This document shows positions 45,444 through 61,113 of a stretch of 64,000 nt of DNA, in pieces. Each line of letters starts with the position of its first letter. Within the stretch, counting starts at the first letter, position 1. Below the pieces are notes generated by a model. That model was not told the origin of the DNA, did no database searches, and was given only the letters and a program-made list of their open reading frames with translations. This DNA is from Hymenopellis radicata (taxonomy: Eukaryota > Basidiomycota > Agaricomycetes > Agaricales > Physalacriaceae), in NCBI GenBank assembly GCA_015501595.1, contig JADNRX010000206.1:1-64000 (forward strand). The letters run 5' to 3'. A program made the position numbers and the translations under genes.

Positions 45444-45870
45444 CAGCTGCGACGTGAAGTCGGGCAGCTCTCTCGGCTTGCAGTCGCAGAGAAACCATCC
45501 CGACTTGTAGTCGAGTGATGGGGTGGTGGTGGGAGGGAGCGCAAAAAAGCCTGATTTGGCTCAGCCACGTGCTTCGGCTGCGCGGCAGAAAGTCTTGCAA
45601 ACGTCCTTTCAATTTGCTTTCAATTGAAGATTGCACAACGAATAATTTCCAGACGGTTTAAAGATTCAGTGGAAAAATGTACATTAAATGTGGCATTCTG
45701 AGAGTACAACGTTCATTTAATAATACAAAAAAAATTTTAGAAACTTTTTCATAGTAGTCCGTGTGGTAGTACAGGCGCCCTTCTGAACTACAAAGCATCC
45801 GACGTAGTGACGCGCGAGCATATGCTCGGACTCATTAAGGAGCGCGATGCTGACATTCTTCATCATCCGT
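45444..45870 (-). repeat. 3'-end module of the hairpin element family, copy 1 (fragment)
   Basis: Reverse-orientation copy of the 3' end found at 54110-54600. It has three hairpins at 45450-45462 (CGACGTGAAGTCG), 45474-45486 (CGGCTTGCAGTCG) and 45501-45513 (CGACTTGTAGTCG). Then follow the GGGAGGGAGCGC block, TTCAATTGAAGATTGCA, the words around CATTTAATGTACATTTTTCC and the CTCATTAAGGA...GATGCTGACAT end. Similarity stops near 45870, so no gene body is attached. It abuts the start of the Plavaka relic. Confidence 0.8.
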
Positions 45871-45939
45871 GTGGCGCCCTTTTAAATCATCCTCCTGGCG
45901 CCGACCACTAACTTGTTCACGTGTTTATCCTTCAAGCTT

Positions 45940-48288
45940 CGCCGATAATGATCGCAATCTTGACCTCGCCCTCTATCCCATGCCTACAAAACGTCAGTAT
46001 ATGCCATGCCATGCAATAGCAGAGGGCTCACGCATCTTGAAGATGCCAGCACGAGCAGTCCTAGACGCTTCCGGCATATCACAGTGCACACAAACAAACG
46101 CCTGAGAAAACTCCGCGTGCCCAGCAGGCTTCGACAACAAATCTTTCTCCAACAAGCGGTTTTCCTGACGACGTCCTGAAGCGATAAGATCAGCGTCTTC
46201 AACGCGAGACATCATCCCGAGATGTTGATGATTCTAGAGACAGATAAGACATACATAACCAGAAAGGTACGCGAAGACTAACCATAGCTGTACGCCAACG
46301 CATGAGACCGAACAATCTCGTCCCAGGTGGGGATATCCGTCTGGAGTCACATTCCTCGCATTGGAAGAACATATCAACACCGTCCATATCCTCAGCAGTC
46401 GCCGTATCTGGGTCCAATCCACACATCCTCACAAAGTCTTTGCATCGGTTATAGACATCCTGATTACCGCTGTAGTGCCCTTGCCGTTCCAAATCCTAAC
46501 TGGTGTCACCAACGCGAGCGGTAGAATAGAAGCAGGAGTGTGAGGCGAAGTGTGGATAATGAAGGACCACGGACAAGGAGCGCCTGCAGCAGTCGGCGCA
46601 AGTAAAAGCGTTGACGACCAATGAGAGATCATCGGCGCCCCGTCTTCGTGAGTATCGCTTTCAAGCGAGTCTCGTGTTCTTGTCTCCATTCGTCACAGAT
46701 GGCGGGCACAGTCTCAAAGTGCTTCCTCGAGCTTGGCGGTGATGTCCTCGTCATGCGGCGTATTTTGGATAATGTCCAGAAAAGGCTGGTAGGTGCAAAG
46801 CGCGGAGGCTGGGGGATTGGGCACCGTTTCTGGCAATTTCGAGAGGAGACAATCTCCCAGCCTTTCTAGAAGCCGTATTCTCCCAGCGATGGCAATTAGT
46901 ATCTTTCGCTCGAGTATGCGCGCGCGGAGATTCAACATGACTTCTGTGAGAGCGGCCTTGATGGCCTCCCATACTAAAACGAGTAATATCAGCGTCAAGC
47001 AAATAGGATTGCGGAAAACTTACTTCGGTTGGTCAGCTCTTTAGGTTGTTTGACCACCGGGTGGGATTTCAGAATCATATCAGCCAAAGGATGATCTAAT
47101 TCTTCTTCCCAGCCGTCTGCCTTCAGGCGAGCAATGATACTGTTGTTTTGTCAACCTCTGCGATATGTGTAGCATACGGGTCCGGCACCTTTGAAGTCTT
47201 TGTTCGCGAAGAGAGGCTAGCTGTGCTACGCGAGCTTCGGCCTAGAGGCGGCCCAGGACTCGTACAGCTTGCAGGACTTCGAAAAGGAGTTGAGTTTATT
47301 CCCTTATGCTGAATAAGGCTCACCTCAACAAGCGCCTCGTGCTCCTCTTGCCGCTCGGAAAGCCATGCTGCATACTCTGGCGTTCCACGCTGGAGTTCAG
47401 CACTCTCCTGGCCCCAGCCTATCGTAAGAGGCCCGATGAAAGTATAGGATAACTACGGATTCTGAGACACAACCATGCTCGAAACGCGGAACAGCAGTGA
47501 GCAAATCCTGAACTTTGTGGGGGTCTCCAGTCCGTCGACGAAATGCCCCCGCGGTCGCCATACTTCATGGAATAAGAAATGGTTCTTTGAACAAAGATAG
47601 CTGCTCGTACATGGTTCCTTTGTCCAGGCATTCCACGCACAACCTCATATGTATTCCCCACTGGATATGTCTAGTTGCTGGTTTCCCGCAGCCCTAATAA
47701 ATATGTAAGGACCTGAACATCTATCCGATAAATACACGTACGTGGCAATGACTGTCGAACAGCAAGTTGGCGTACTGCGGTTCGCTGAGGCCCTCAATTA
47801 TCGGGGGAAGACCCCCCATCGCCAGAAAGGCGCTCTTCCAGACAGTTCTAGACGATTTGTCCATGAGCAGCGAGCGTAGCGCTTTAGTAGTGCGGCTCAT
47901 CCGCAAGAGGTCTAGAGGCTCCAAGTGAGAAAAGATCTGGAGCAAGACTCAATTGAGAAACACGCTTGGCTGAACGTCTATAGACACGTACCACAAAGAG
48001 AACGTCGACGGGAGCCTCAGCAAACTGTCTTAGCCTTCCTCGTCCATTTCGAGTTGGTGCAGCTTGACTTGATGACTCGACCGCAGCACTGATCTTGGCA
48101 CGTTTCCGGGGTTTCCTGCGAGGTTCGTCCTTTTCGTCTCTGTCTGAGGAAGTGGCTCTCTGGCGACTTTTCGCTGGAGCTACTTTCACCTTCGGCGTGA
48201 CAATCGCTTTTGGCTGAGAGAGCTTGGCGCCATCTTTCGTCTTCGCGACGGTAATGCGGTTGGAGCGACGAGGATGTAAGGACGCCAT
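45940..48288 (-). pseudogene. F-box protein gene, probably decaying
   Basis: Exon 1, 47992-48288, starts MASLHPRRSNRITVAK and is Lys/Arg-rich. It is spliced (GTACGT...CCAG) to exon 2, 47742-47936. Together they read PVDVLFVIFSHLEPLDLLRM, a clear F-box that would recruit an SCF ubiquitin ligase. A CxxC-containing segment follows (CHGCGKPATRHIQWG, CVECLDKG). Further down are family-like blocks (ALCTYQPFLDII, CRDFV-like DFVRMCGLDPDTATAEDMDG, FFQCEECD, FVCVHCDMPEASRTA). An in-frame TGA follows KEPFLIP near 47570, and a frame change occurs near 46735 (KLEE to HFETVP). Either introns were missed or the gene is degenerating. Confidence 0.65.
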
Positions 48289-49134
48289 GTTGGTAGAATG
48301 ATGGGAAAAGGTAGAGTGGCTCCGTCATGATAAAAGCCGAGTCACCTGATCGCACTCCCATTCAGCAAATTGAGACAATGCGGGCTTTGTGAACGCTCGG
48401 TCACCGAACCCGCCCTGGGAAAGCTTCCACATTATGAATGAAATACACTGGCGCAATCCAGGCAAATGCTCTGCAATTCGCTAGCCCGAAGGTCGGACGT
48501 GAAGGGGTGCTTAACGCAAGTTTGTCGGTGACGACCTCTTTAGAGGCAACCGTATTATCGCTGGACCGTCGCGGACCGTGACTCCGGAATCGGACTTGAC
48601 CACGGAAGGGAAGGCGGAGTCGAGTGCGGCGTGCTTTCGGATGTGGCGGCCTTCGTCCGTGAATGCTCAAATGTGGTGCAGGCGTAATAAGCCGGGTCTT
48701 CAATTCGACAATCAGATGCTTGCCAGTTTCTGGCTTACCGCTCTAGTACTAGATATCCGTTGTAGACTCGTCGACGTCATCGGGCCCACTAAGATACCAC
48801 ATATCCACCGTCGCATCCATATAGGCGAGCCATCTCAAGCCTACGTCAAGGGGACAAGAATCAGGATCATGAGATGGTCGAGGGGAAGACGTGGAAGATA
48901 ATAATGGATAGCGAGCGAGAATAGCCAGACGGTTTACTTTGAATTGGGTTTAAGCCTCAGATTCTACCCAGTTTGATTTCGACGAGGATGTAAACTACCA
49001 ACGAATCGAGCGGGATGTAGGATCGGGCAATTCCTAGAGATCCCAAGGAGAGTGACGAGTGCTGCCGTAGCCCAGAGGATGTCAGCTTGAGGGATGTATT
49101 ATAGAGCGGCTAAATTGGTGGCCTCGATGGCTCT
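48289..49134. other. Intergenic region, no gene seen
   Basis: Upstream side of the F-box gene. No open frame has family resemblance and no repeat was recognised. Confidence 0.4.
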
Positions 49135-51160
49135 CGACGTGCAGTCGCGGAGCTTCTCTCCTCCTAGCCATCGGTTTGTAACCGTAGAGCAACCGTCCCG
49201 ACTTGTAGTCGAGTGACGGTGGTGGTGGGAGGGAGCGCTTGATTTGGCTCAAGCAACGTGCTTCGGCTCCACGGCAATCAGTTCAGAAAGTCTCGCTTCC
49301 ATTGAAGATTGCAGAACGAATAAATTCCAGACGGTCTCAGTATTCAGAGGAAATGTGTACATTAAATGTGGCATTATGGGAGTACAACGTTGATATAATA
49401 ATTCTAAGAAAAGATTCAGAAACTTTTTCCGTGTGGTAGTACGGGCATTCTGAACCATTCTACAAAGCACGCGTAGTGACGCGCAAGCCTATTCTAGAAC
49501 TCAGTAAGGATCGCGATGCTGACATCCTTCGCAGATTCTATTGTAACGGCACGCTCGATGGTTCCGGCGGTCATCTCGCCCATGATGCGGAATAGACCCA
49601 ACAATGCACCCCGACGTTCCTCAAACCGGATGAGGCGAAGCCATCATGTCCAACATCAGTACTTGCGGGAATGTGTGGTCCATTGAAATGGGGAACGCAG
49701 CCAAGAATGCGGATATCGCGGCCCCGGTACTTGAGGCGTCCAACTCGTCAAATGGCTGACTTGTTTGCTCAAAGTTGGCGGGCTTGAATTGGTAGCAGAG
49801 TCGATCGAGGGTTACGAGCTCGTATCGAAAGTAGATCTCGAATAATTCCAAAAGATCTCCGAAATGACATTCTCCGGTAGTGGGTTGGGCAGAGGTTGAT
49901 CTCGCCACAAGACCGTGGCCGTCCCCATCTTCGAAAGATCGATAGTACCCTGTTCAAAGGTTAGTTGATGAAAAAGAAAGCAGTAGAAAGGGTACCTCTA
50001 GCTTCCCAGCCTTCATACAGTCCATCAACTTGGTTTGCACGTCATTCCTCCGCTGCGAAACAAATGAATCGGGCTTATTCCCGAAGCTATCGATTCCGAG
50101 TAAATCGCGCCACGACGTTGGGCTGAGCAGTTCGAACATGGGGGAAATGATGCGGTAATGGAGTGCGTGGCGCAACTTGAGGTATACCGTGATATAAGCG
50201 TCACGAATGGCCGAATTTGTCATTGTAGCGATAAAGCCAGGATCAGGCAAGGCATAACCACGATTGACTTTAGGATTAGACCTCGAGTTCTGGTCAAAGC
50301 TTTGGCCGATGTCGCGTGAAGCTCGCATCCATTCAGGAAGAGAACGTGGCACGAGAGGCGAGCTAACGTCGAGAAATTTGTTCCGGTCCTGATTGGCTGG
50401 CTTGTGCTTGTGGGACGAGCGCGAAGAATCTAGCAAGGCAATTAGACACGGCTAATAATCAACACCGATACTAACAGGGTTTGTGTCTGGACTCGGAGGA
50501 TGAACGAATGCTTCTAGAAGGCCCGCCACTCCCCAAAGTGCCCTGCACGGAAAGCTGATGCAAATCAAGTTGAAGAGCTGGTGGTGCATCCGCTACTTCC
50601 CAATTACTACCCGGGGAGGCTCTGTCGTGCGCGAATTTGGCCATGGCGCGATACCTCTCGACATTATAAGGTTGCCCTCTGAAAATGACGGGGTGTGGGA
50701 CAGCAGCGTGTGTACTCGCGGGTTGCGAGAGGTTCCTCGATCCACCGGTCAACACGAACCGCATCTGCTCCATCTATAGGACGAACAAGCTAGCAGGGTA
50801 TCCCAGCCCTAACCAAATTTTCAGCATCGTGGAGGTTGTTGACATACTTACGCTCCAATAACGTTCCGGAGAGGGGAGTGCTTTGCAGTAGGAGACGTAA
50901 ACTGTTCCCGCTCCAAGCAAGTACACTGAGTTAGGCGTCTAAACATGAACGCTTCGTCGAGGCCCGGTGTAATATTTGAGTCGACCAAGGTGCGTGGCGA
51001 TGACCTCGTCGTCCCTCACTCCGTTCTGAACATCTCCTCCGAACGCAGCGTGCCAACCTTCCTTCAAAACTCCTTGATTTCACCCTCCATAATCTGACGC
51101 CATTCCGTCTTGACAAGACCCAGTGTATTAGGATTGTCGTGACTTGGAATTCCATTCTGT
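49135..51160 (-). pseudogene. Truncated inverted copy of the 52096-54272 gene with its 3' hairpins
   Basis: This stretch is the reverse-strand partner of about 52440-54560. The middle exon is still almost perfect (NKFLDVSSPLVPRSLPEWMR, FIATMTNSAIRDAYITVYLK; 49954-50436). The first exon is broken into several frames and lacks its first 390 or so bases. The last exon has frame changes near 49690. The 3' end carries three hairpins: 49199-49211 (CGACTTGTAGTCG), 49172-49184 (CGGTTTGTAACCG) and 49135-49147 (CGACGTGCAGTCG). It is a non-coding relic, but informative for hairpin covariation. Confidence 0.85.
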
Positions 51161-51264
51161 TGTTTGTATTTCGGTATGGATCATAACTCGTACTATTGAG
51201 CGGCTAGTGGAAAGAACAGGTTTCTCGGAGAATGTTGCAGAAAGGGAGCAATGACAGGCAGAAT

Positions 51265-51714
51265 CTATACATGCTCTGTTTCTTCCAAGCACAATCGCAA
51301 CTTCTTCCTCATCTCTTCGTCTGCATAGTGAATGGTCTCCGGCGATTCGTCGTCAGGATCGTAGTCCTGGGTCATGAGACGCGTGACAATGTCCTAGAAT
51401 GATTGTCAGAATCAATTGTGTAGCCAACAAAATGCACAAACCATCTTCCTCGCCGCTTGAAGAGCAAGCCTATGTTCGGAATCCGGTAGAGGAATCATTT
51501 CGTCGACCAGTGGGAATAATTTGAAGAAGAAAGCAATCGTAGTGCCGTCATTGACCGTGGCGAGATAGTAGGGTTCTGCGAGCAGATTATTAGGGCATAG
51601 CAGGAGGGAAGTGTGACGACGTACCGCGTACAGCAACTTGAACTGTTGAAAAAGTACGAACAGCAAGGTCGAGCTATTTATATGTCTGTGGGTCCTTGCT
51701 TTGTGGAGCACCAA
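51265..51714 (-). CDS. Small unidentified gene between the inverted copies
   Basis: Two exons on the minus strand: one ending at 51442 (EPYYLATVNDGTTIAFFFKL, DSEHRLALQAARKM) and 51265-51393 (DIVTRLMTQDYDPDDESPET to a stop after ETEHV). They are joined by a 49-base GT-AG intron. A TATAAATA box lies near 51683 on the same strand, about 40 bases before a Phe- and Leu-rich 5' part that may itself contain a small intron (about 51573-51624). The product would be only 100-120 residues. No family is recognised. It may be cargo of, or a flanking fragment caught by, the hairpin-bounded element. Confidence 0.4.
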
Positions 51715-51725
51715 ATTGCTTTGTG

Positions 51726-52093
51726 CAGGCTATAATAGCCTTCGGCCCGACAAGCGCACAGTTCCGACATGAAGTCGAGTCGCGACGTGCAGAGTCGACG
51801 TATAGTCGACCGCTGGCCAGCCACCTTTTCCGGACTGTATCCGAGAGCAAGGTGGTGGTATGAGAGAGAGAGACGGCGGGATAAGCGCCAAATGATGTTG
51901 ACGTTGTTTAGTCGGTTCGGCAAGCCGGCTTTGTCCCCTTTAGGACACAAGTGACAAGTCCCCTGTTTCTTACCATTATTGTCACTCGACTTCAAGTCGG
52001 CGACTTGGATCTATTGTTCGACTTCAAGTCGCAGCGACTTCGACACAAGCACTGTCTGCACGTAGTGCCTATACATCGTTCGACTACAAGTCG
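51726..52093. promoter_or_regulatory. Hairpin cluster between two divergent genes (5' end of the element)
   Basis: Short inverted repeats are packed here. They are AGGCTA-TAA-TAGCCT (51726-51740), CGACATGAAGTCG (51764-51776), GTCGACGTATAGTCGAC (51794-51810), CGACTTCAAGTCG (51987-51999), CGACTTCAAGTCG again (52019-52031), GCACGTAGTGC (52058-52068) and CGACTACAAGTCG (52081-52093). The last ends two bases before the ATG at 52096. The three CGACT/AGTCG hairpins start 32 and 62 bases apart, nearly mirroring the spacing at the 3' end of the gene (57 and 30). The cluster could be subterminal binding sites for a transposase, a regulatory array, or RNA hairpins in the leader. Confidence 0.75.
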
Positions 52094-52095
52094 TT

Positions 52096-54272
52096 ATGGT
52101 GTCCTCGACGGCTGGGCCTGGACCAAGTAAGTCGTATCTTACATCAATGTTCATTGACTCAATCAGCACAGTCCGTAGCTTTGAAGGCAAGGTCGGCAAG
52201 CGCTATCAAGATCTCAAACTTTTCATTACGTCCCCCAATATGGATTTCATTGCCCCTCCTCCGTTCGGGACGCGTACCATTCGAATGTACTCCAACTTTA
52301 CATTCGGACCTGACGATCCCTTGAATACTGCCCAAATCTTCCACTATGCTGTCGGTCACCTCGCTTTAATAGCATCTACAGATTCCCTCCAAACCGTCAG
52401 TAATTCTGGCCGGTGGATTTTCTCCATCATGCCGTCTGACCGGGAATTCGTCCTTCTTGACCACGACAATCCATCTAATACACTAGGTCTTGTCAAGACG
52501 GAATTGCGTCAGATTATGGAGGGTGAAATCAAGGAGTTTAGAAGGAGGGTTGGAACGCTGCGTTCGGAGGAGTTTAACAAGGATGTTCAGAACGGAGTGA
52601 GGGACGACCAGGTTATCGCCACGCACCTTGGTCGACTCAAATATTACGCCGGGCGCCTCTCAAATCCAATGACCCGCGACGAAACGTTTATGCTTTGGCG
52701 TCTAACTCAGCGTACTTGCTTGGAGCTGGATGCTCGCATCGTGTGGGTCAGCGAGGCTCGGGAACAGTTCATGTCTCCTACTGCAAAGCATTCCCCTCTC
52801 CGGAACGTTATTGGAGCATATGTCAACAACCTCGACAATGCTGAGAATTTGGTTAGGGCTGGGATACCATGCTGGCTTGTTCGTCCCATAGATGGAGCAG
52901 ACGCGGTTCGTGTTGACCGGTGGATCGAGGAACCTCTCACAGCCCGCGAGTACACGGACGCTGCTGTCCCACACCCAGTCATTTTCCAAGGGCAACCTTA
53001 CGACCTCGAGAGGTACCGTGCCATGGCCAATTTCGCACACGACAGGGCCTCGCCGGGCAGTAATTGGGGAGTAGCAGATGCGCCACCAGCTCCTCAACTT
53101 GATTCGCAGCAGCTTTCTGTTCAGGGCACTTCGGGTAGCGGCGGGCCTTCCAGAAACATTCGTCCATCTTCCGATTCGAGACCCAAACCTTGTAAGTATT
53201 GGTGTTGATCATTAGCTGTGTCTAATTCTCTTGCTAGATTCTTCGCGCCCTCCCCAAAAGCAAAAGCAAGGCAATCAGGACCGGAACAAATTTCTCGACG
53301 TCAGCTCGCCTCTCGTGCCACGTTCTCTTCCTGAATGGATGCGAGCTTCACGCGACATCGGCCAAAGCTTTGACCAGAACTCGAGGTCTAATCCTAAAGT
53401 CAATCGTGGTTATGCCTTGCCTGATCCTGGCTTTATCGCTACAATGACAAATTCGGCCATTCGTGACGCTTATATCACGGTATACCTCAAGTTGCGCCAC
53501 GCACTCCATTACCGCATCAGTTCCCCCATGTTCGAACCGCTCAGCCCAACGTCGTGGCGCGATTTACTCGGAATCGATAGCTTCGGGAATAAGCCCGATT
53601 CATATGTCGCGAAGCGGAGGAATGATGTGCAAACAAAGTTGATGGACTGTATAAAGGCCGGAAAGCTAGAGGTACCCTTTCTACGGCTTTCTTTTTCATT
53701 AACTAACCTTTGAACAGGGTACTATTGATCTTTCGAAGATGGGGACGGCCACGGTCTTGTGGCGAGATCAACCTCTGCCCAACCCACTACCGGAGCATGT
53801 CATTTCGGAGATCTTTTGGGAATTATTCGAGATCAACTTCCGATACGAGCTCGTAGCCCTCGATCGACTCTGCTACCAATTCAAGCCTGCCAACTTTCAA
53901 CAAACAAGTCAGCCATTTGACGAGTTGGATGCCTCAAGTACCGGTGACCGCGAGATCCGCCTTCTCGGTTGCATCCCTCATTTCAATGGACGACTCATTC
54001 CAGAAAGTCTTGACGTCGGACGTGCTGGCTTCGCCTCATCCGATATAGAGGAACGTCGTGTGGCATTGTTGGGTCTATTCCGCATCATGCGAGGTTGGAC
54101 AAAGATGGAAAAGATGACCGCCGGAACCATCGAGCGTGCCGTTGCAATAGAATCCGCCAAAGACATCAGCGCCGTGATCCTTAATGAGTTCGAGCATAGG
54201 CTCGCGCGTCACTACGTCGGGTGCTTTGTAGCATGGTTCAGAAGGGCGCCTGTACTGCCACACGGACTATGA
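52096..54272 (+). CDS. Uncharacterised 694-residue protein, intact, bounded by hairpin clusters
   Basis: Exons 52096-53191, 53238-53671 and 53718-54272 total 2085 bases, or 694 residues, with two GT-AG introns. No known domain is visible. The N-terminal half is helical with a central block (YYAGRLSNPMTRDETFML, ARIVWVSEAREQFMSPT, AGIPCWLVRPIDGADAVRVD). It is followed by a Ser/Gly/Pro-rich linker and a second globular part (PEWMRASRDIGQSFDQ, NSAIRDAYITVYLKLRHAL, WRDLLGIDSFGNKPDSY, LFEINFRYELVALDRLCYQF). Similar multi-copy proteins are, as I recall, common in agaricomycetes and unnamed. The last 50 residues (from MTAGTIERAVAIESAKDIS) belong to the 3' module also found behind a different gene at 60698. 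A truncated inverted copy lies at 49135-51160. Confidence 0.8.
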
Positions 54273-54600
54273 AAATGTTTCCGAATTTTTTTTAGAATTA
54301 TTATATTAACGTTGTACTCCCTGAATGCCACATTTAATGTACACATTTCCTCTGAATACTGAGACCGTCTGGAATTTATTCGTTCTGCAATCTTCAATTG
54401 AAGTTCCATTTGCGAGACTTTCTGCCGCGCAGCCGAAGCACGTGGCTTCATTTATCCTCCCCGTCACTCGACTACAAGTCGGGACGGTTGGTTTCAAGCA
54501 CAGGGCAAGGAGCGGAAAAGCTCTGCGACTTCAAGTCGCGAGCCATCGGGAGTACCGACTACAGGTCGGGACTTTGCTCTGCGACCATACGCCGAGAGGA
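54110..54600 (+). repeat. 3'-end module of the hairpin element family, copy 3
   Basis: The shared segment starts inside the C-terminal coding region (GACCGCCGGAAC), runs through the stop codon, a 3' untranslated region with TTTTTTTTAGAATTATTATAT and CATTTAATGTACACATTTCC, and TTCAATTGAAGTT. It ends in hairpins at 54469-54481 (CGACTACAAGTCG), 54526-54538 (CGACTTCAAGTCG) and 54555-54569 (CCGACTACAGGTCGG). It lacks the middle CGGCT/AGCCG hairpin of the other copies but has an extra outer one. Confidence 0.85.
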
Positions 54601-54879
54601 TTGCCCGACTGCAAGACCAACAAACGTTCTTCTGTCGGTCTACGAGGCCTTACGCGGTAACCGACGGGCTCTAAAGGACACTGTCGCACAATAAAAACAA
54701 GGTGCCAGACGTAGGTGTTTTCGCTGTTCTCATTCTTGTTTGGCTAATTTTTATATACAGGATGCATACCGCGCCATCCGTACAAACGCAGCGCACATAA
54801 AATCTGGATGCCCTGCTCAGGACGCGCCTCGTGAAATGGTCGATGAACAGCTGGACATCCGAGTCTCAGGAGATATACA

Positions 54880-55374
54880 TTGACGGAGTCCACTGCAATA
54901 TGTTTACACGATTTCTCCTCCAGACTCCAGTCGCTCGCCGACTCCTCTGGCGGCTCTGGTTGCAATACTCTCAAGTTATACCTTAGACCTCTATACGTCG
55001 TTGGGAGCGGCGTTCAAAGACACCCTCCCGCTATGGCTTCTCTGACATTGGACGGTTCGCACAACGACGATGCACCCATTATGACTGCAGATGGCAACGA
55101 GACCATTCAGGCGTTGAACGAGCAGTGGAAACAAAGGCTCAAGGGTGCCAAGACGTGGGTAGCGAATAGGATTCGAGAACTCGCACTGCAAGAAGAGAAT
55201 GGTGCGCGTCCCAACTGCACAATGTCCGTATCTAAAACGTGCAACAGACTACGCTGTCCCGATAATCCTTGCAAGAAGCGTAACTTGAATGTAACCCCGC
55301 CGAACTCGGCAAGGCGAGTTCGACAGGTTGGACCAGATCTAGAGGATGATTTCGACATCTTTACCTCGAGTTGA
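54880..55374 (+). CDS. Unidentified small protein
   Basis: A frame of 164 codons ending at 55374. A start at the internal ATG near 55033 (MASLTLDGSHNDDAP) would give 113 residues. It has an amphipathic helix (IQALNEQWKQRLKGAKTWV), several Cys and basic residues and an acidic ending. Nothing identifies it. It lies between two genes on the same strand and could be an unrecognised first exon of the following gene. Confidence 0.3.
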   Translation: MTESTAICLHDFSSRLQSLADSSGGSGCNTLKLYLRPLYVVGSGVQRHPPAMASLTLDGSHNDDAPIMTADGNETIQALNEQWKQRLKGAKTWVANRIRELALQEENGARPNCTMSVSKTCNRLRCPDNPCKKRNLNVTPPNSARRVRQVGPDLEDDFDIFTSS

Positions 55375-55650
55375 TATTCACGGTGGGAAGAAAGGTCAGT
55401 CTTGCTTGGTCTACTTCATTTTTAAAAATTGTACCATAGTCCTCTGTATTACCACTGGAAATGAAAGGTTTGTCCTCGCATGCCCAATCAAGTTGATCGA
55501 ATGAACAAAGGATTCATCAACTCTGCGCAGCCAAGACGACGCTTTGCGTCGAACAATGGCAGATCTAATGAGGCCTACGACAAAAGCGCGCTGCATTTTC
55601 TCGTCGTCTCCTTTCATACACCACCGCCACCCGCCACCCAACCTACCTCC

Positions 55651-58539
55651 ATGTCGAAAAGGAACGAACCAGCAATCCTCATCCACAATTTTCTCATTGG
55701 TCACCCTGATTTCCCGGGCGTCCCAGATGGCTTTTTGAGCTTTTCCTTCAAAGAGCCCGATGACTTCGTCTCCATGGATGAAGCCTTTCTTCTTCATTGG
55801 ATTCAGGTCAACCACGACCGGCTTTGCGCGCCGACCCCGGCGCCGACTTGCTTTTGGGAAGCTGCTGAGGTCTACCAGGCAGACCTACCCAGAAGCATTG
55901 GTCCGGACGGTCGGTTTCGGGGCGTACCGCGGTTTGGTGGTCGTGTAACAACACCTATCCCAAAGGGTGTCTATCACAAACAGGCACTCTGTTTCGCTGT
56001 GTCTCCCAAGCATCTTGCAAATAAACGGGCCCGTGTTAATTCGGAACCATCTCCTCCCCCGCAGACAATTGATACCGCCCGGCGGTCGAAGAAGTCAAGA
56101 AAGGTTATTCTGACCCGGATTGGGGTCGAACGATTCCTTACAGTTGCCGATAAACGTTCCTATGAGACTTTTCCTGTGTTTCGATGCGGCAATGCAGCCG
56201 TTCCTGTTTCTTCGGTACGTTTTTTGGTACTGTTCTCGACACTAACAAACTCACAATCAACTATCTTTAGTGTGAACCACCCAGCGACTTCTTGAAACAC
56301 CTCCAAACCGATGGGTTGCTCTTCGCCGATTTCTCATCAATACTTCCACAGTTGACGGGAGATACGAACGGCTATTTCACCGGTCCACTGTCAAGATCGA
56401 GCGCCAAATCTTACGCATCGATGGTCAAGTACTTCCGTGATAAGGCCCATAAGGACGACTTCGGACAAACCTTCGGACAGCTTACCGTAGGGCCATATGC
56501 GGCCGAACATCCCTCTGAACACTCGCGAGATTATATCCTGTCGTTTGATTTCGCAGTGGTTCCAAAGGGTATCCACACGCTGGAATCGATCCTCAAAAGA
56601 CTGACAGACATTATTGATAAAGGTGTGGGGGCCGCTGCCCACAAATACGGCGGTGATCTGTCTATTGTGTCTCCGAACGCTTTCTTTGGAAAGAAGAAAG
56701 GTTTCGATGCCTTGCAACTTTTTTGGTGAGGTCGCATGTATACATTCAGTTGTTTCTTTACTCATCCTTCAACTTGAACAGGACCATTTTCAGCGCCACT
56801 TCGAAGATTCGTCGTGCGCCATATCTATATTCATTGAAGACTACGATTCCATGACGCGTTACGCGGAGTTCATCTCCCTTACAAGTTCACCTTCCAAACC
56901 TTCCTATCCCTCCGTCGATGAGATTATCATCCTTCTCGAGACCAACTTCTACAACGTGATCTCCTCTTTCCGGGAGTCGTTTGGGGCACGAGTCTACTTC
57001 TTTGGCTCTTCGCCTGCTCTTGGTTACCGCCTCAAAGGCTTTTTGATAACAGATGTAACGAAACTGGCAGAGGGATTCGGAGTCGCTGGGTACAGCCGTG
57101 CGCAGTTTCAGGCGTGTGTAGCTGCGCTTCGTGGAGAACTGGAAGAAGACGGAAAACCTCCCTTGAGAATGGCTTTAAAGCATCTCCCGAGGTACCGTTA
57201 TGGACCGAAAGAGACTGACCAATTCCCCCAACTGTATGCACACACACTGCTTCAGCAGTTTCATCCCCGCCTCTCTCCCTCTGCAACGAAGATTCTCGAA
57301 GCGTGCCATGAACATGTTAATCGTCTCATTGACTTCGATGCGCTGCCGGCCATCAGGGCTATTTACGCTCGGAGAGGAAAGCAATGGGAAGCATCGCTGA
57401 CGCAGCTTACGGTTCAAGGCATTCTGGCGGGCTCTGGTACCCATGCTCTCCGCCATAGTTACGGTGACCTTCCACCTGACGAGACAATGGAAAATGGTTA
57501 CAAACTGGTTCAATGTCCAGCGACGCCCCAGCCTTTCTATGCCCTCTGCTACGACGAGGGCATACTCACCGGTGACTATTCAAACAACGTTGACGTTTCG
57601 GAGAAATATGCGTTCGTGTCCGACACGATGAAAATGGCGGTAAGCATACTTCATCTTTCTTCTTCCTGTACTACAAACTCATGGGCGTTTCAGTTCCTCC
57701 AAAAGGTCGTCCAAGCCGTTAAAATGACCGGTGTTAGTGTGTTAGAGCCATTCGACGGTACTGCAGAATGGTGGTACAACGCGCTCGCCTGGTACCTGAA
57801 AGCCACTCGGACCGCAGTATCGAACTATTTCTTCGACGAAGGCCACCTCCAATGCCTATCTTTGAGCCTGTGTCAGGCCAGTTTGGCCATCGGTGCAGGA
57901 AGCACTACCCGGGCGACCTTGGAGACCGAGACGAAGTTTTGTCGTCGTATTGACATCCTGTTCGTCGAGGAGGACCTCACCATTGTCACCGAGGACAAGA
58001 CTATCTCTTTATGCAATATTATAGAAGGCACGTTCGGGTTCACGTTCCCTCGAAGAAACCACAAGGTGAACTTCAAAGAACTGGAGACCGAGCACAAGGA
58101 GATGATCATGGCCTTCTCTGAGTACTGTCGGAACGAGCTCCCTGAAGCCGTCTTCAAGGAGACGCCGTTCACGAAGGACTATCCCAAGACTCCGTCGGTC
58201 AAGAACCGAGACCTGAAGATGAACCCCCCGACGAAACTGGAAGACTTCTTCTACGTGGGATGGAACGCGGCCAAGAAGTGGGGCGTATACAGCATCTTCG
58301 CGTTGTGGGAGGAGGCGGAGCTTCAAGGCAACGGGTACGCCACAGAAATTCAGGCAGGCACTGTCAAGGATAATCGCTTTAAATGTCGTTATGTTGGAGA
58401 GGATAGCGCCGGACCTCGAGGGATGATCGTGGTCCTCTTGGTCATAGTCGTCGCCGGTCTCTGTGTTCTGTCCAGGGAGTCAAGGCAGCGATTCCCTTCT
58501 CGATACATACTGGAGCCAACTGGGAAGCTCCCGAAATAA
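55651..58539 (+). CDS. NTPase-like plus PD-(D/E)XK nuclease-like prot
   Basis: Exon 1 (about 55651-56214) is joined to exon 2 (56271-56719 or so) by GTACGT...TTTAG. A third exon follows, and an intron lies at 57640-57693. The first half resembles the fungal AAA-ATPase-like domain, with a Walker-B-like IFIEDYDS and a sensor-like block LKGFLITDVTKLAEGFG. A clear Walker A was not found. The C-terminal part has the restriction-nuclease pattern RRIDILFVEEDLTIVTEDKT, meaning Asp plus E-x-K like residues. This NTPase plus nuclease order is known from transposon-derived Crinkler-RHS-type (CR) effectors and related mobile genes. The join after exon 2 is one base out of frame at a six-T run near 56720, so the copy may be broken. 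Overall length is about 900 residues. Confidence 0.6.
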
Positions 58540-59331
58540 AGGGACTGTTCATGTTCATTTTATTTCATTTGCAAGGCATAATTTATCTATATTTACATCA
58601 ACAATCGACCGCCACCCAGATCGCTTTGGAAGAGGGCATCATCGTCTTCCCCTCACATACGCACTGTCTCCTCTTCAGAAACAATTCTTCTCTTCTCCCA
58701 CGCACACACCATCCCGTCTTCAGAAGACCTTTCCCCAGCACTTCTTCATCCATCCTCCGGGGAGCAGCACGAGGGAGTAAAGCAGTCCTCGCATGCCCGA
58801 AGACTTGCTACGAAGTGCGTGGGGACGTCTTCACCTCTCGCTCTACTACAGCGTAGAGTGTCTTCCCGGCAGTAGAGCGTCGGGTGTCTCCCTGAGCGCG
58901 GGCGCCCAAATCACACTTAGTCTCCTCAACGACATCCTCCAAGTGCTTGTTTTGCGTCTTGAAGGATCGAGTCAGTATCTCATTAGCTCGAGAGTAAGTC
59001 TTTACTTACTCTTGTGTAGGCGGGACAGGCCAAACCGGAGGAAAGGTAAGACTCAATAGTACCAGAGACGAAAGACAAGTGTGGCGGGCGGTTGAGCGGT
59101 GGACAGGAGCCGTGTGGTTCGGTATTTCGGGGCGAATGACTGTCGACGCTGAGTAAGAGCCAGTCTGAGCCACACGCGTCGCGCGCGAACAATAGGATGC
59201 GAACAATAGGATGTCATGCGTGGCCAATTCAAATTCACGTGAGACTGCCCTCAAATAGTCAGCTGGGTTTCAAACCGCGTCCTCCTCTCACTCCCACCAT
59301 TATCCAACAAGCACTGCTTCCATAGCCCAAC
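58540..59331. other. Spacer between two NTPase-family genes, no gene seen
   Basis: Pyrimidine-rich stretch followed by short frames without family resemblance. No hairpin cluster of the CGACT type was found here, so neither flanking gene has the 5' cluster on this side. Confidence 0.4.
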
Positions 59332-60775
59332 ATGTCGATATTCGTTACGGTGCTCGACGACGACGCGCAATATGTCCGTTCCGTTGAATCTGGTACGCGT
59401 TAAACTCGATCTTTATTGCCCGACTGAGCCGATCTTTAGCTGACTCTGCATCATTGTCGTCGTCGTTGGAGGGTTTCCGCAGCGAGCTTTTTTTCTGATG
59501 TACTCTCCACATCCTCCGTCTCGTCACGGTCTGGCCCCGACATGAACAGTTTCGCATCTCCTCGGAGCGGTGGCTTGCAGCGTTCGTTTTCCCCGAGCCA
59601 AAACAGGGCTTCTTTCTACCCAGAATACTATCATCCGCCCACCCTTATTCGCCCTCATATATACAAATGCGCATTTGCAGCCGCAAAAGTAAGTTGTCTA
59701 TGTACCTATCCGCGCCGACCACACTAATTCTGTGTAGTGCCGACTTCCTTCTGACAATATACCGCAACATTTTCTTGACACTCCTGGGACCATATGGGTC
59801 AACAAGATACCACTCGTCGAATCTTTATGTCCCGTAATCTCTCAGTTGGGAAATTGGCTTGCCCTAATCAGACGCCCTTCTGGCTACGGGAAGACTGCGT
59901 TCATTTACACGTCCGGTTTTCTTCACGACGTCCTCAATGAGCGTACCGCCGCGCATGTCTTTGGTCCTCGTGCATCAAGCTTTCCATACGTTCGGGGAGA
60001 CCGTCTTGTCCTGCGTATTGACCTACAGACAGTCTTCTACGATACCAGCGAGACCATGTGCAGCTCTGTGGACGCGTACCTGAATGCCGTCTATTACTGT
60101 TTCCTCCACCAGTACGCCGAGAAATTGGATTTGTCGGACGCAGATGAAATCAGGAGCTACATTTGCCCCCAGGCCACACATACATTCGACGAGATCTTGG
60201 TAAGCCCGTGTATGCTCAAGGGACACTTTCTAACCATCTATTCAGGACCTTCTCACCTTTTCGGGTCACAAACTTGTGCTCTTTATCGACAACTTCAACT
60301 CGCCACTATTGAACTCAACACCCGAGAACTGCAATGACATCCATGGTCGTATCTGGGACTGTATCATTTGCCCTTTGCGTTCCGCTCTGGAAGCTGGCTT
60401 AGTAGTCGGCGGGGTTGTTTTGGGAACGCCTATCGCAGAGGAACCAATATGGGTTAGATCATCCCAAGCTTCCAGTCGCTCTTTGAGCACATTGCGCGCG
60501 ATGTATCCGACGAGGAGCGAGTTCGAGGTGCCTTTGGATTTACGTTGCCTGAGGTTCAAGAATTGGCAGCGGAGGCATTGGGCGAGGCTGAGGGCATCAA
60601 GTTCGTGGATGAGCTAAAGCACAGCCCAGCGTATCGTAGTGGCGACTACGTCGAGTATTCCATGGAGGATGTTCTGGGACGCCTAAGATCCCGTACGATG
60701 TCCGCCGGAACTATCAAGCGGGCCACGGCAAAAGAATCTGTTGTGAAAGATATCAGCCTCGATGGTGTTTTGTAA
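59332..60775 (+). pseudogene. AAA-ATPase-like gene carrying the shared 3' module, frameshifted
   Basis: Exons by eye: 59332-59392, 59440-59688, 59738-60199 and 60246-60775. The P-loop region reads RRPSGYGKTAFIYTSG, preceded by the usual VNKIPLVESL. The Walker-B-like strand is LVLFIDNFNSPL. The family is the fungal AAA-ATPase-like (DUF1703-related) group, as in the gene at 55651. A seven-T run near 59488 puts exon 2 out of frame by one base, and another shift lies near 60450, after which FQSLFEHIARDVSDEERV continues. The last 25 residues (MSAGTIKRATAKESVVKDIS) and the 3' flank are the module shared with the unrelated 52096 gene. No nuclease domain is present, because the module replaces it. 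Confidence 0.65.
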
Positions 60776-61113
60776 CATGGTTTAGAAGGGCGCCTGTACT
60801 ACCAGTGAAAATGTTTCTGAATTTTTTTTAGAATTATTATATCAACGTTGTACTCTCTGAATGCCACATTTAATGTACACATTTCCACCGAATGCTGAGA
60901 CCGTCTGGAATTTATTCGTTCTGCAATCTTCAATTGAAGTTGCGTTTGCGAGACGACTTTCTGCCGCACAGCCGAAACACGTGGCTTCAGCCAAATCGGG
61001 CTTTTGTGCGCCCCTCCCCACTGCCACCCCGTCACTCGACTACAAGTCGGGACGGTTTCTCTACGGCTACAAGCCGAGCGCTGTGATGGCCGCAGCTCTG
61101 CGACTGTAGGTCG
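60698..61113 (+). repeat. 3'-end module of the hairpin element family, copy 4
   Basis: Matches 54110-54540: coding tail, stop, TTTTTTTTAGAATTATTATAT, CATTTAATGTACACATTTCC and TTCAATTGAAGTT. Hairpins are at 61037-61049 (CGACTACAAGTCG), 61064-61076 (CGGCTACAAGCCG) and 61101-61113 (CGACTGTAGGTCG). Here the module is fused to an NTPase-like gene instead of the 694-residue gene. Confidence 0.85.

What the first reader, a model, noticed from the sequence alone, without database searches (positions are those of the whole stretch)
45450..61113. A family of 13-base hairpins shows compensatory base changes across four copies
Four loci carry the same ordered set of tiny hairpins with 4-5 bp stems and 3-base loops. 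The inner one (CGACT/AGTCG) is invariant. The middle one reads CGGCT/AGCCG at 61064, CGGTT/AACCG at 49172 (C-G replaced by T-A on both sides) and CGGCT/AGTCG at 45474 (a G-U-compatible change). The third keeps its outer CGAC/GTCG while loops and inner pairs vary. Paired substitutions in otherwise drifting sequence suggest that the folded form, in DNA or RNA, is what is kept. I know of no described element with this signature.
Basis: partly seen in the sequence, partly recalled or inferred. Interest (0 to 1): 0.9.

Follow-up and report, generated by a model that had tools for sequence, protein, structure and literature searches.

The report
Bulged hairpin arrays in fungal transposons
Short fold-back DNA repeats seen beside a mushroom gene family belong to a genome-wide set of 24-base bulged hairpins, best preserved inside small jumping genes, whose two arms change together as if the folded or mirror-image shape is what matters.

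Summary
The hairpins are real and above chance. Three of the four window loci carry the full ordered set; the 54.47-kb copy lacks the middle hairpin. Across 25 copies of the module compensatory changes exist but are few (6 both-side cells of 436). The genome is the mushroom Hymenopellis radicata, by the label of a protein on a contig of equal length. The core CGACTTNNAGTCG occurs 517/509 times on the two strands against 27/18 for a reversed control. The fetched arrays hold usually four units 32-33 bp apart; six with enough flank lie inside 1.0-1.2-kb hAT-type transposons (inverted ends, perfect 8-bp target duplications). Each unit is a 5-bp variable arm, a one-base bulge (usually T), a 5-bp nearly invariant core and a 3-base loop. 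The arms covary, and pairing stops after 5 bp. The arrays align between transposon families whose ends do not. I read them as transposon-borne structural DNA sites, probably for a dimeric or hairpin-reading protein, reused beside amplified genes. An RNA role, template-switch upkeep without selection, and plain dimer sites remain open.

The parts
45450..45462 (+). outer hairpin core CGACGTGAAGTCG of module copy 1; arms AGCTG/CAGCT lie just outside
45474..45486 (+). middle hairpin core CGGCTTGCAGTCG (one G-T)
45495..45521 (+). inner hairpin: arms CCATC/GATGG around core CGACTTGTAGTCG (45501-45513)
49135..49147 (+). outer hairpin core CGACGTGCAGTCG, module copy 2
49172..49184 (+). middle hairpin core CGGTTTGTAACCG (both-side change)
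49193..49219 (+). inner hairpin: arms CCGTC/GACGG around CGACTTGTAGTCG
51758..52093 (+). 5' cluster upstream of gene A: palindromes at 51765, 51796, 51831 (CGGACTGTATCCG with arms CCACCTT/AAGGTGG), 51987, 52019, 52081
52096..54272 (+). gene A, 679 aa by my inferred splicing; family of unknown function with relatives in Marasmius, Tetrapyrgos, Stygiomarasmius and Dendrothele
54469..54568 (-). module copy 3 (3' of gene A): cores at 54469, 54526, 54556; middle hairpin lost
45870..48288 (-). gene B region (limits approximate), F-box-like segment at 47724-47948; ends in the shared 3' module
59738..60775 (+). gene C region (limits approximate), weakly AAA-ATPase-like, below Pfam cut-off; ends in the shared 3' module
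61037..61049 (-). inner hairpin core, module copy 4
61064..61076 (-). middle hairpin core CGGCTTGTAGCCG
61101..61113 (-). outer hairpin core CGACCTACAGTCG (minus-strand reading)

Best explanation
The 13-mers are the conserved cores of bulged inverted repeats: 5-bp variable complementary arm, one unpaired base (usually T), CGACT-NNN-AGTCG, complementary arm. Arrays of such units, usually four and 32-33 bp apart (about three helical turns), are a kept internal module of several families of short hAT-type transposons in Hymenopellis radicata. Looser arrays of the same unit flank an amplified gene family, which is what the window shows. Shown: the unit, its spacing, the covarying arms, and the transposon ends with target duplications of six carriers. 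Inferred: the module works at DNA level as a cluster of sites for a protein, transposon- or host-encoded, that reads the symmetric core and needs the inverted-repeat geometry (hairpin or cruciform with an extruded base). Template-switch mutation may help keep the arms matched.
For: Core 517/509 genome matches against 27/18 for the reversed control. Six full elements with at least 11 of 12 end bases inverted and perfect 8-bp TSDs. In 87 units from 26 array loci, arms of 5 bp or more in 36, against 8.6 +- 2.5 (maximum 18 in 1000 re-pairings). Unselected 142 units, weighted: mean pairing excess of +0.222 on the one-base-bulge diagonal, at most 0.07 off it; five pairs deep, none at pairs 6-7. RNAalifold finds the same bulged stem on 99 selected units. 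99 of 127 core spacings of up to 70 bp are 32 or 33 bp. Hairpin zone 69-81% identical in 8 of 11 between-family comparisons, while the end 150 columns are 39-51%; part of that zone identity is the core itself. Nearly invariant core with a variable loop fits a dimer site. The gene-flanking copies lie both 5' and 3' of genes and show no clear G-U over A-C bias (78 against 55 of 1213 cells, 92 other mismatches).
Against: No binding protein or autonomous partner was identified. No matching TIR/TSD pair was found round the window modules, so their link to the transposons is only the shared unit. In the hAT arrays, mismatches on one strand favour G-U over A-C (26 against 10 in 43 distinct bulge-class arm sets), which suits RNA. 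By plain APC rank the arm pairs are not on top: 3 of the best 25 column pairs. The window-family covariation is weak. 3 of 11 between-family comparisons (those with L046) had no usable aligned zone.
Confidence: 0.4

Rival explanations
1. The arrays act as RNA: a transcript of one strand of the element folds into bulged hairpins bound by an RNA-binding or processing protein.
For: In the one element tested (L038) one strand folds better than the other (z -5.77 against -3.45). G-U 26 against A-C 10 in 43 distinct arm sets of the bulge class (binomial p 0.011 at 1:1, 0.093 if a transition bias of 0.58 as seen outside is allowed for). Mostly uniform bulge side in the hAT arrays once oriented: 94 left, 8 right, 19 flush of 121 units.
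Against: No transcription data. No Rfam match at gathering score in the window and 8 matches in six loci with elements, all below gathering score. In the 9 distinct flush arm sets A-C is not rarer (3 against 1). The gene-flanking copies show little strand bias, and by eye their bulge lies on either side.
Confidence: 0.2
2. No selection on the fold: quasi-palindrome template switching keeps copying one arm onto the other, so paired changes arise in single events.
For: This mechanism is in print (PMC8794818, abstract read). The L038 first hairpin differs from its L049 counterpart by an inverted loop (TGC/GCA) and a filled bulge, as such an event would leave (sequences; by eye).
Against: A simple switch would fill the bulge, yet 116 of 142 units pair better with a bulge than flush. 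The arm signal stops at 5 bp. Only 1 of 461 loop comparisons between copies is an inversion, and that one is also a single-base change (the L038/L049 case was not picked up by its flank filter).
Confidence: 0.2
3. Ordinary clustered binding sites for a dimeric DNA-binding protein (CGACT-N3-AGTCG); the arms only reflect the ancestry of a 33-bp repeat.
For: Core nearly invariant with a variable 3-base spacer; a cluster lies just upstream of gene A's start.
Against: Arm pairs show 14 further pair types while staying 96.4% paired (75% in shuffles; at most 67% when slid, selected units). Ancestry alone does not predict that.
Confidence: 0.15

Closest known systems
Non-autonomous hAT elements / MITEs
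   Same: Inverted ends beginning TAGA, perfect 8-bp target duplications, 1034-1207 bp
   Different: They carry a kept internal array of covarying bulged hairpins shared between families with different ends; my searches listed none described so
Bacterial REP / IS200-IS605-type hairpins
   Same: Short dispersed palindromes with a conserved bulge in the stem that matters for recognition (PMC8266576, passages read)
   Different: Eukaryotic nuclear DNA, array at fixed spacing inside hAT-type elements, no HUH transposase looked for; analogy only
Template-switch-maintained hairpins (PMC8794818, abstract, opening and outline read)
   Same: Paired changes in stems
   Different: Here a bulge between core and arm is kept in most units, which simple switching would erase
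Tam3 end hairpins (hAT of snapdragon; recalled, described in no call)
   Same: Hairpin-forming sequence in a hAT element
   Different: Not known to me as a spaced array with invariant core and covarying arms

Membership tests
hAT superfamily (six array carriers) | 8-bp target site duplication | tested here: met
   perfect in L033, L036, L038, L044, L046, L049
hAT superfamily (six array carriers) | terminal inverted repeats | tested here: met
   11-12 of 12 matching end bases
hAT superfamily (six array carriers) | mobilised by a hAT transposase | not tested
   hAT domains exist in the genome (70 matches) but were not tied to these ends; 16 open frames in or overlapping the elements gave no Pfam match over cut-off
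hAT superfamily (the other 40 fetched array stretches) | TIR with 8-bp TSD | not tested
   only 201-361 bases fetched of each
hAT superfamily (window modules at genes A, B, C) | TIR with 8-bp TSD | tested here: not met
   no TAGA-type pair round the modules, exact or relaxed; five of the six 8-bp hits lie within the inverted gene duplication and one joins two module copies
Known structured RNA family | Rfam match at gathering score | tested here: not met
   window 0 matches; six loci with elements 8 matches, all below gathering score
REP / IS200-IS605 hairpins | bulged imperfect palindrome | tested here: met
REP / IS200-IS605 hairpins | HUH (Y1) transposase acting on folded single strand | not tested
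   no search made

The most novel reading that the evidence does not exclude
A eukaryotic nuclear element recognised in its folded form: an array of bulged hairpins with an extruded base, spaced by three helical turns, that is exchanged as a module between transposon families with different ends and has been taken up beside amplified host genes.
Probability: 0.22. Interest if true: 0.82.

Novelty: new variant of a known kind. Interest (0 to 1): 0.58.

Why it matters
Small non-coding transposons are usually thought to keep only their ends. Here an internal array stays alignable and base-paired while the ends differ, so it points to an unrecognised cis-acting function. The many natural copies also make selection against template-switch upkeep of hairpins directly testable in a eukaryote.

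Tried and rejected
Gene A as a transposase: no Pfam match at cut-off for its open segments; the model of its relative P0002 was poor (mean pLDDT 45.5), so no fold search was made. Known RNA: none at gathering score. tRNA: none in the window. Window modules as hAT ends: rejected. Link to hAT transposase genes by distance: by eye, a few arrays lie within some kilobases of hAT domains; not counted or tested. Coding domains near the arrays and modules: 18 of the 141 open segments were scanned; the few matches over cut-off look like host neighbours (for example GCP_N_terminal beside the L036 element) and are not shared. 16 segments in or overlapping the six elements: none over cut-off. Integron-like cassette idea (different genes sharing one hairpin 3' module): kept only as a thought, untested. 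Papers: searches were listings with starts of abstracts; abstract, opening and outline of PMC8794818; passages of PMC8266576, PMC1978519 and PMC3878927.

Full report
What was checked. Seven exact CGRYTTGTARYCG sites lie in 64 kb, and near matches (26) exceed all 100 shuffles. The ordered trio is at 45.45, 49.14 and 61.10 kb; at 54.47 kb the middle member is gone.

Where it is. The window is contig C526 of a 75.5-Mb assembly. A relative of gene A found (P0001) is labelled Hymenopellis radicata and lies on a contig of the same length, 97,627 bases; that is the basis for the organism. One search gives 39 matches of the 45450 module, 30 of them as loci. I used 25, leaving out L001 and L018 (contig C1209, which appears to repeat this region) and L027-L029 (a split piece of L025's place, and two partial matches without the hairpins). 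The module is the 3' end of gene A (last codons, then 3' flank). Genes B (F-box-like) and C (weakly AAA-like, below Pfam cut-off) end in the same module. Gene A has 8 hits: three from H. radicata itself, five hypothetical proteins of other fungi. The C-terminus of four of those five (P0002, P0004, P0005, P0006) resembles A's by eye, so the module appears native to A.

Genome-wide. CGACTTNNAGTCG occurs 517 and 509 times on the two strands against 27 and 18 for the reversed pattern (which lists only the first 100 places; many of those stand in series). Six array loci with enough flank proved to be complete elements of 1034-1207 bp with inverted ends (TAGAGACCTCAA, TAGACCTGGGCA/TAGACGTGGGCA, TAGAGTTTACAA/TAGAGTTTATAA) and perfect 8-bp duplications: hAT-type. 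By size, and with no Pfam match over cut-off in 16 open frames in or overlapping them, they are non-autonomous. The other 40 array stretches were fetched too short to see their ends. Between families with different ends, the end 150 columns are 39-51% identical. The hairpin zone is 69-81% in 8 of 11 comparisons; in the 3 with L046, whose array lies elsewhere in the element, at most 4 columns aligned there. The conserved cores contribute to the zone's identity.

The unit. In 46 array loci (6 elements, 40 short stretches), 30 have four cores (1 has two, 8 three, 7 five), and 99 of 127 neighbouring spacings of up to 70 bp are 32 or 33 bp. Of 142 distinct units, 116 pair better with a one-base bulge, 23 flush, 3 tie; the bulge base is T in 90 of 116.

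Covariation. (i) 73 exact cores from the loci then held and the window: arms of 5 bp or more in 16, re-paired mean 3.8, maximum 11 of 200 re-pairings. (ii) 87 units from 26 array loci: 36 against 8.6 +- 2.5, maximum 18 of 1000. (iii) All 142 units, weighted to about 25 effective: pairing above expectation mainly along the one-base-bulge diagonal, five pairs deep. By plain APC rank the arm pairs are not cleanly on top: of the 25 best column pairs only 3 are arm pairs (ranks 4, 6, 21), so relatedness adds noise. (iv) 99 of the 116 bulge-class units (17 that looked degenerate or out of place left out by hand, and the class itself is chosen by pairing, so this count is biased upward): 96.4% of cells paired against 74.9%, score 0.636 against 0.231 +- 0.017, slid versions at most 0.257. 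RNAalifold found the same stem on that set. (v) Window module, 24 distinct rows: score 0.141 against 0.115 +- 0.009, 6 both-side cells of 436. RNAalifold found only one short stem there. (vi) 5' cluster, 18 rows (L057 and L068 of 20 left out): score 0.080 against 0.066 +- 0.007 (19 of 500 shuffles as high), 4 both-side cells of 234. So the strong evidence comes from the arrays elsewhere; the window family alone would not carry the claim. No tree-aware test such as R-scape was run, and related copies inflate shuffle tests.

DNA or RNA. On one strand of the arrays, imperfect pairs are more often G-U than A-C: 26 against 10 in 43 distinct bulge-class arm sets, but 1 against 3 in 9 flush sets. With a transition bias of 0.58 as seen outside, p is about 0.09. 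The same strand folds better in the one element tested, L038. Gene-flanking modules show 78 G-U and 55 A-C cells. This is suggestive for RNA, not decisive. The nearly invariant core with free spacer, helical spacing, and placement both 5' and 3' of genes lean to DNA.

Template switching. L038 and L049 differ at their first hairpin by an inverted loop and a filled bulge (sequences), as a template switch would leave. Such switches are reported to create paired changes (PMC8794818, abstract). But a simple switch erases the bulge that most units keep, and in 461 comparisons of units with like flanks loops were 220 the same, 240 otherwise different, and 1 inverted by a single base.

Verdict. A real array of bulged inverted repeats, transposon-borne where the ends could be seen, under a structural constraint of some kind, with looser relatives beside an amplified gene family. 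Function and molecule (DNA or RNA) are inferred. My paper searches listed no description of it; the library holds open-licence papers only.

Noticed in passing
window 49724-51131 and 52475-53944: Two copies of gene A lie head to head as a large inverted repeat (84-96% complementary arms); the minus-strand copy looks broken (frames).
   Followed up: partly
L070 1501-1610 (C1110), L071 290-400 (C826) and further partial matches: A module of about 100 bp with three of the 5' hairpins occurs alone; in L070 and L071 no inverted ends with target duplications were found.
   Followed up: partly
L046 1316-1580: The hairpin array sits in a different place relative to the rest of the element than in L038 and L049, as if it moves as a module.
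   Followed up: no
L038 1146-1320 and 2100-2281: The hAT-type elements carry their own palindromic repeats next to the ends (for example ACTCGCGAGT here), different in each family by eye.
   Followed up: no
L073 3304-4545: A 1242-bp element with ends TAGAGCAAGGCA and duplication AGCACAAC lies just beyond a gene A copy; in the part seen in L024 it shows no CGACT core.
   Followed up: no
contig C1209: Appears to repeat the window's 45-49 kb region; identical over the 451-base query, perhaps a haplotype or assembly duplicate.
   Followed up: no
P0007, P0001: Public gene models on these contigs join gene A pieces to unrelated neighbours, so annotation here is unreliable.
   Followed up: no
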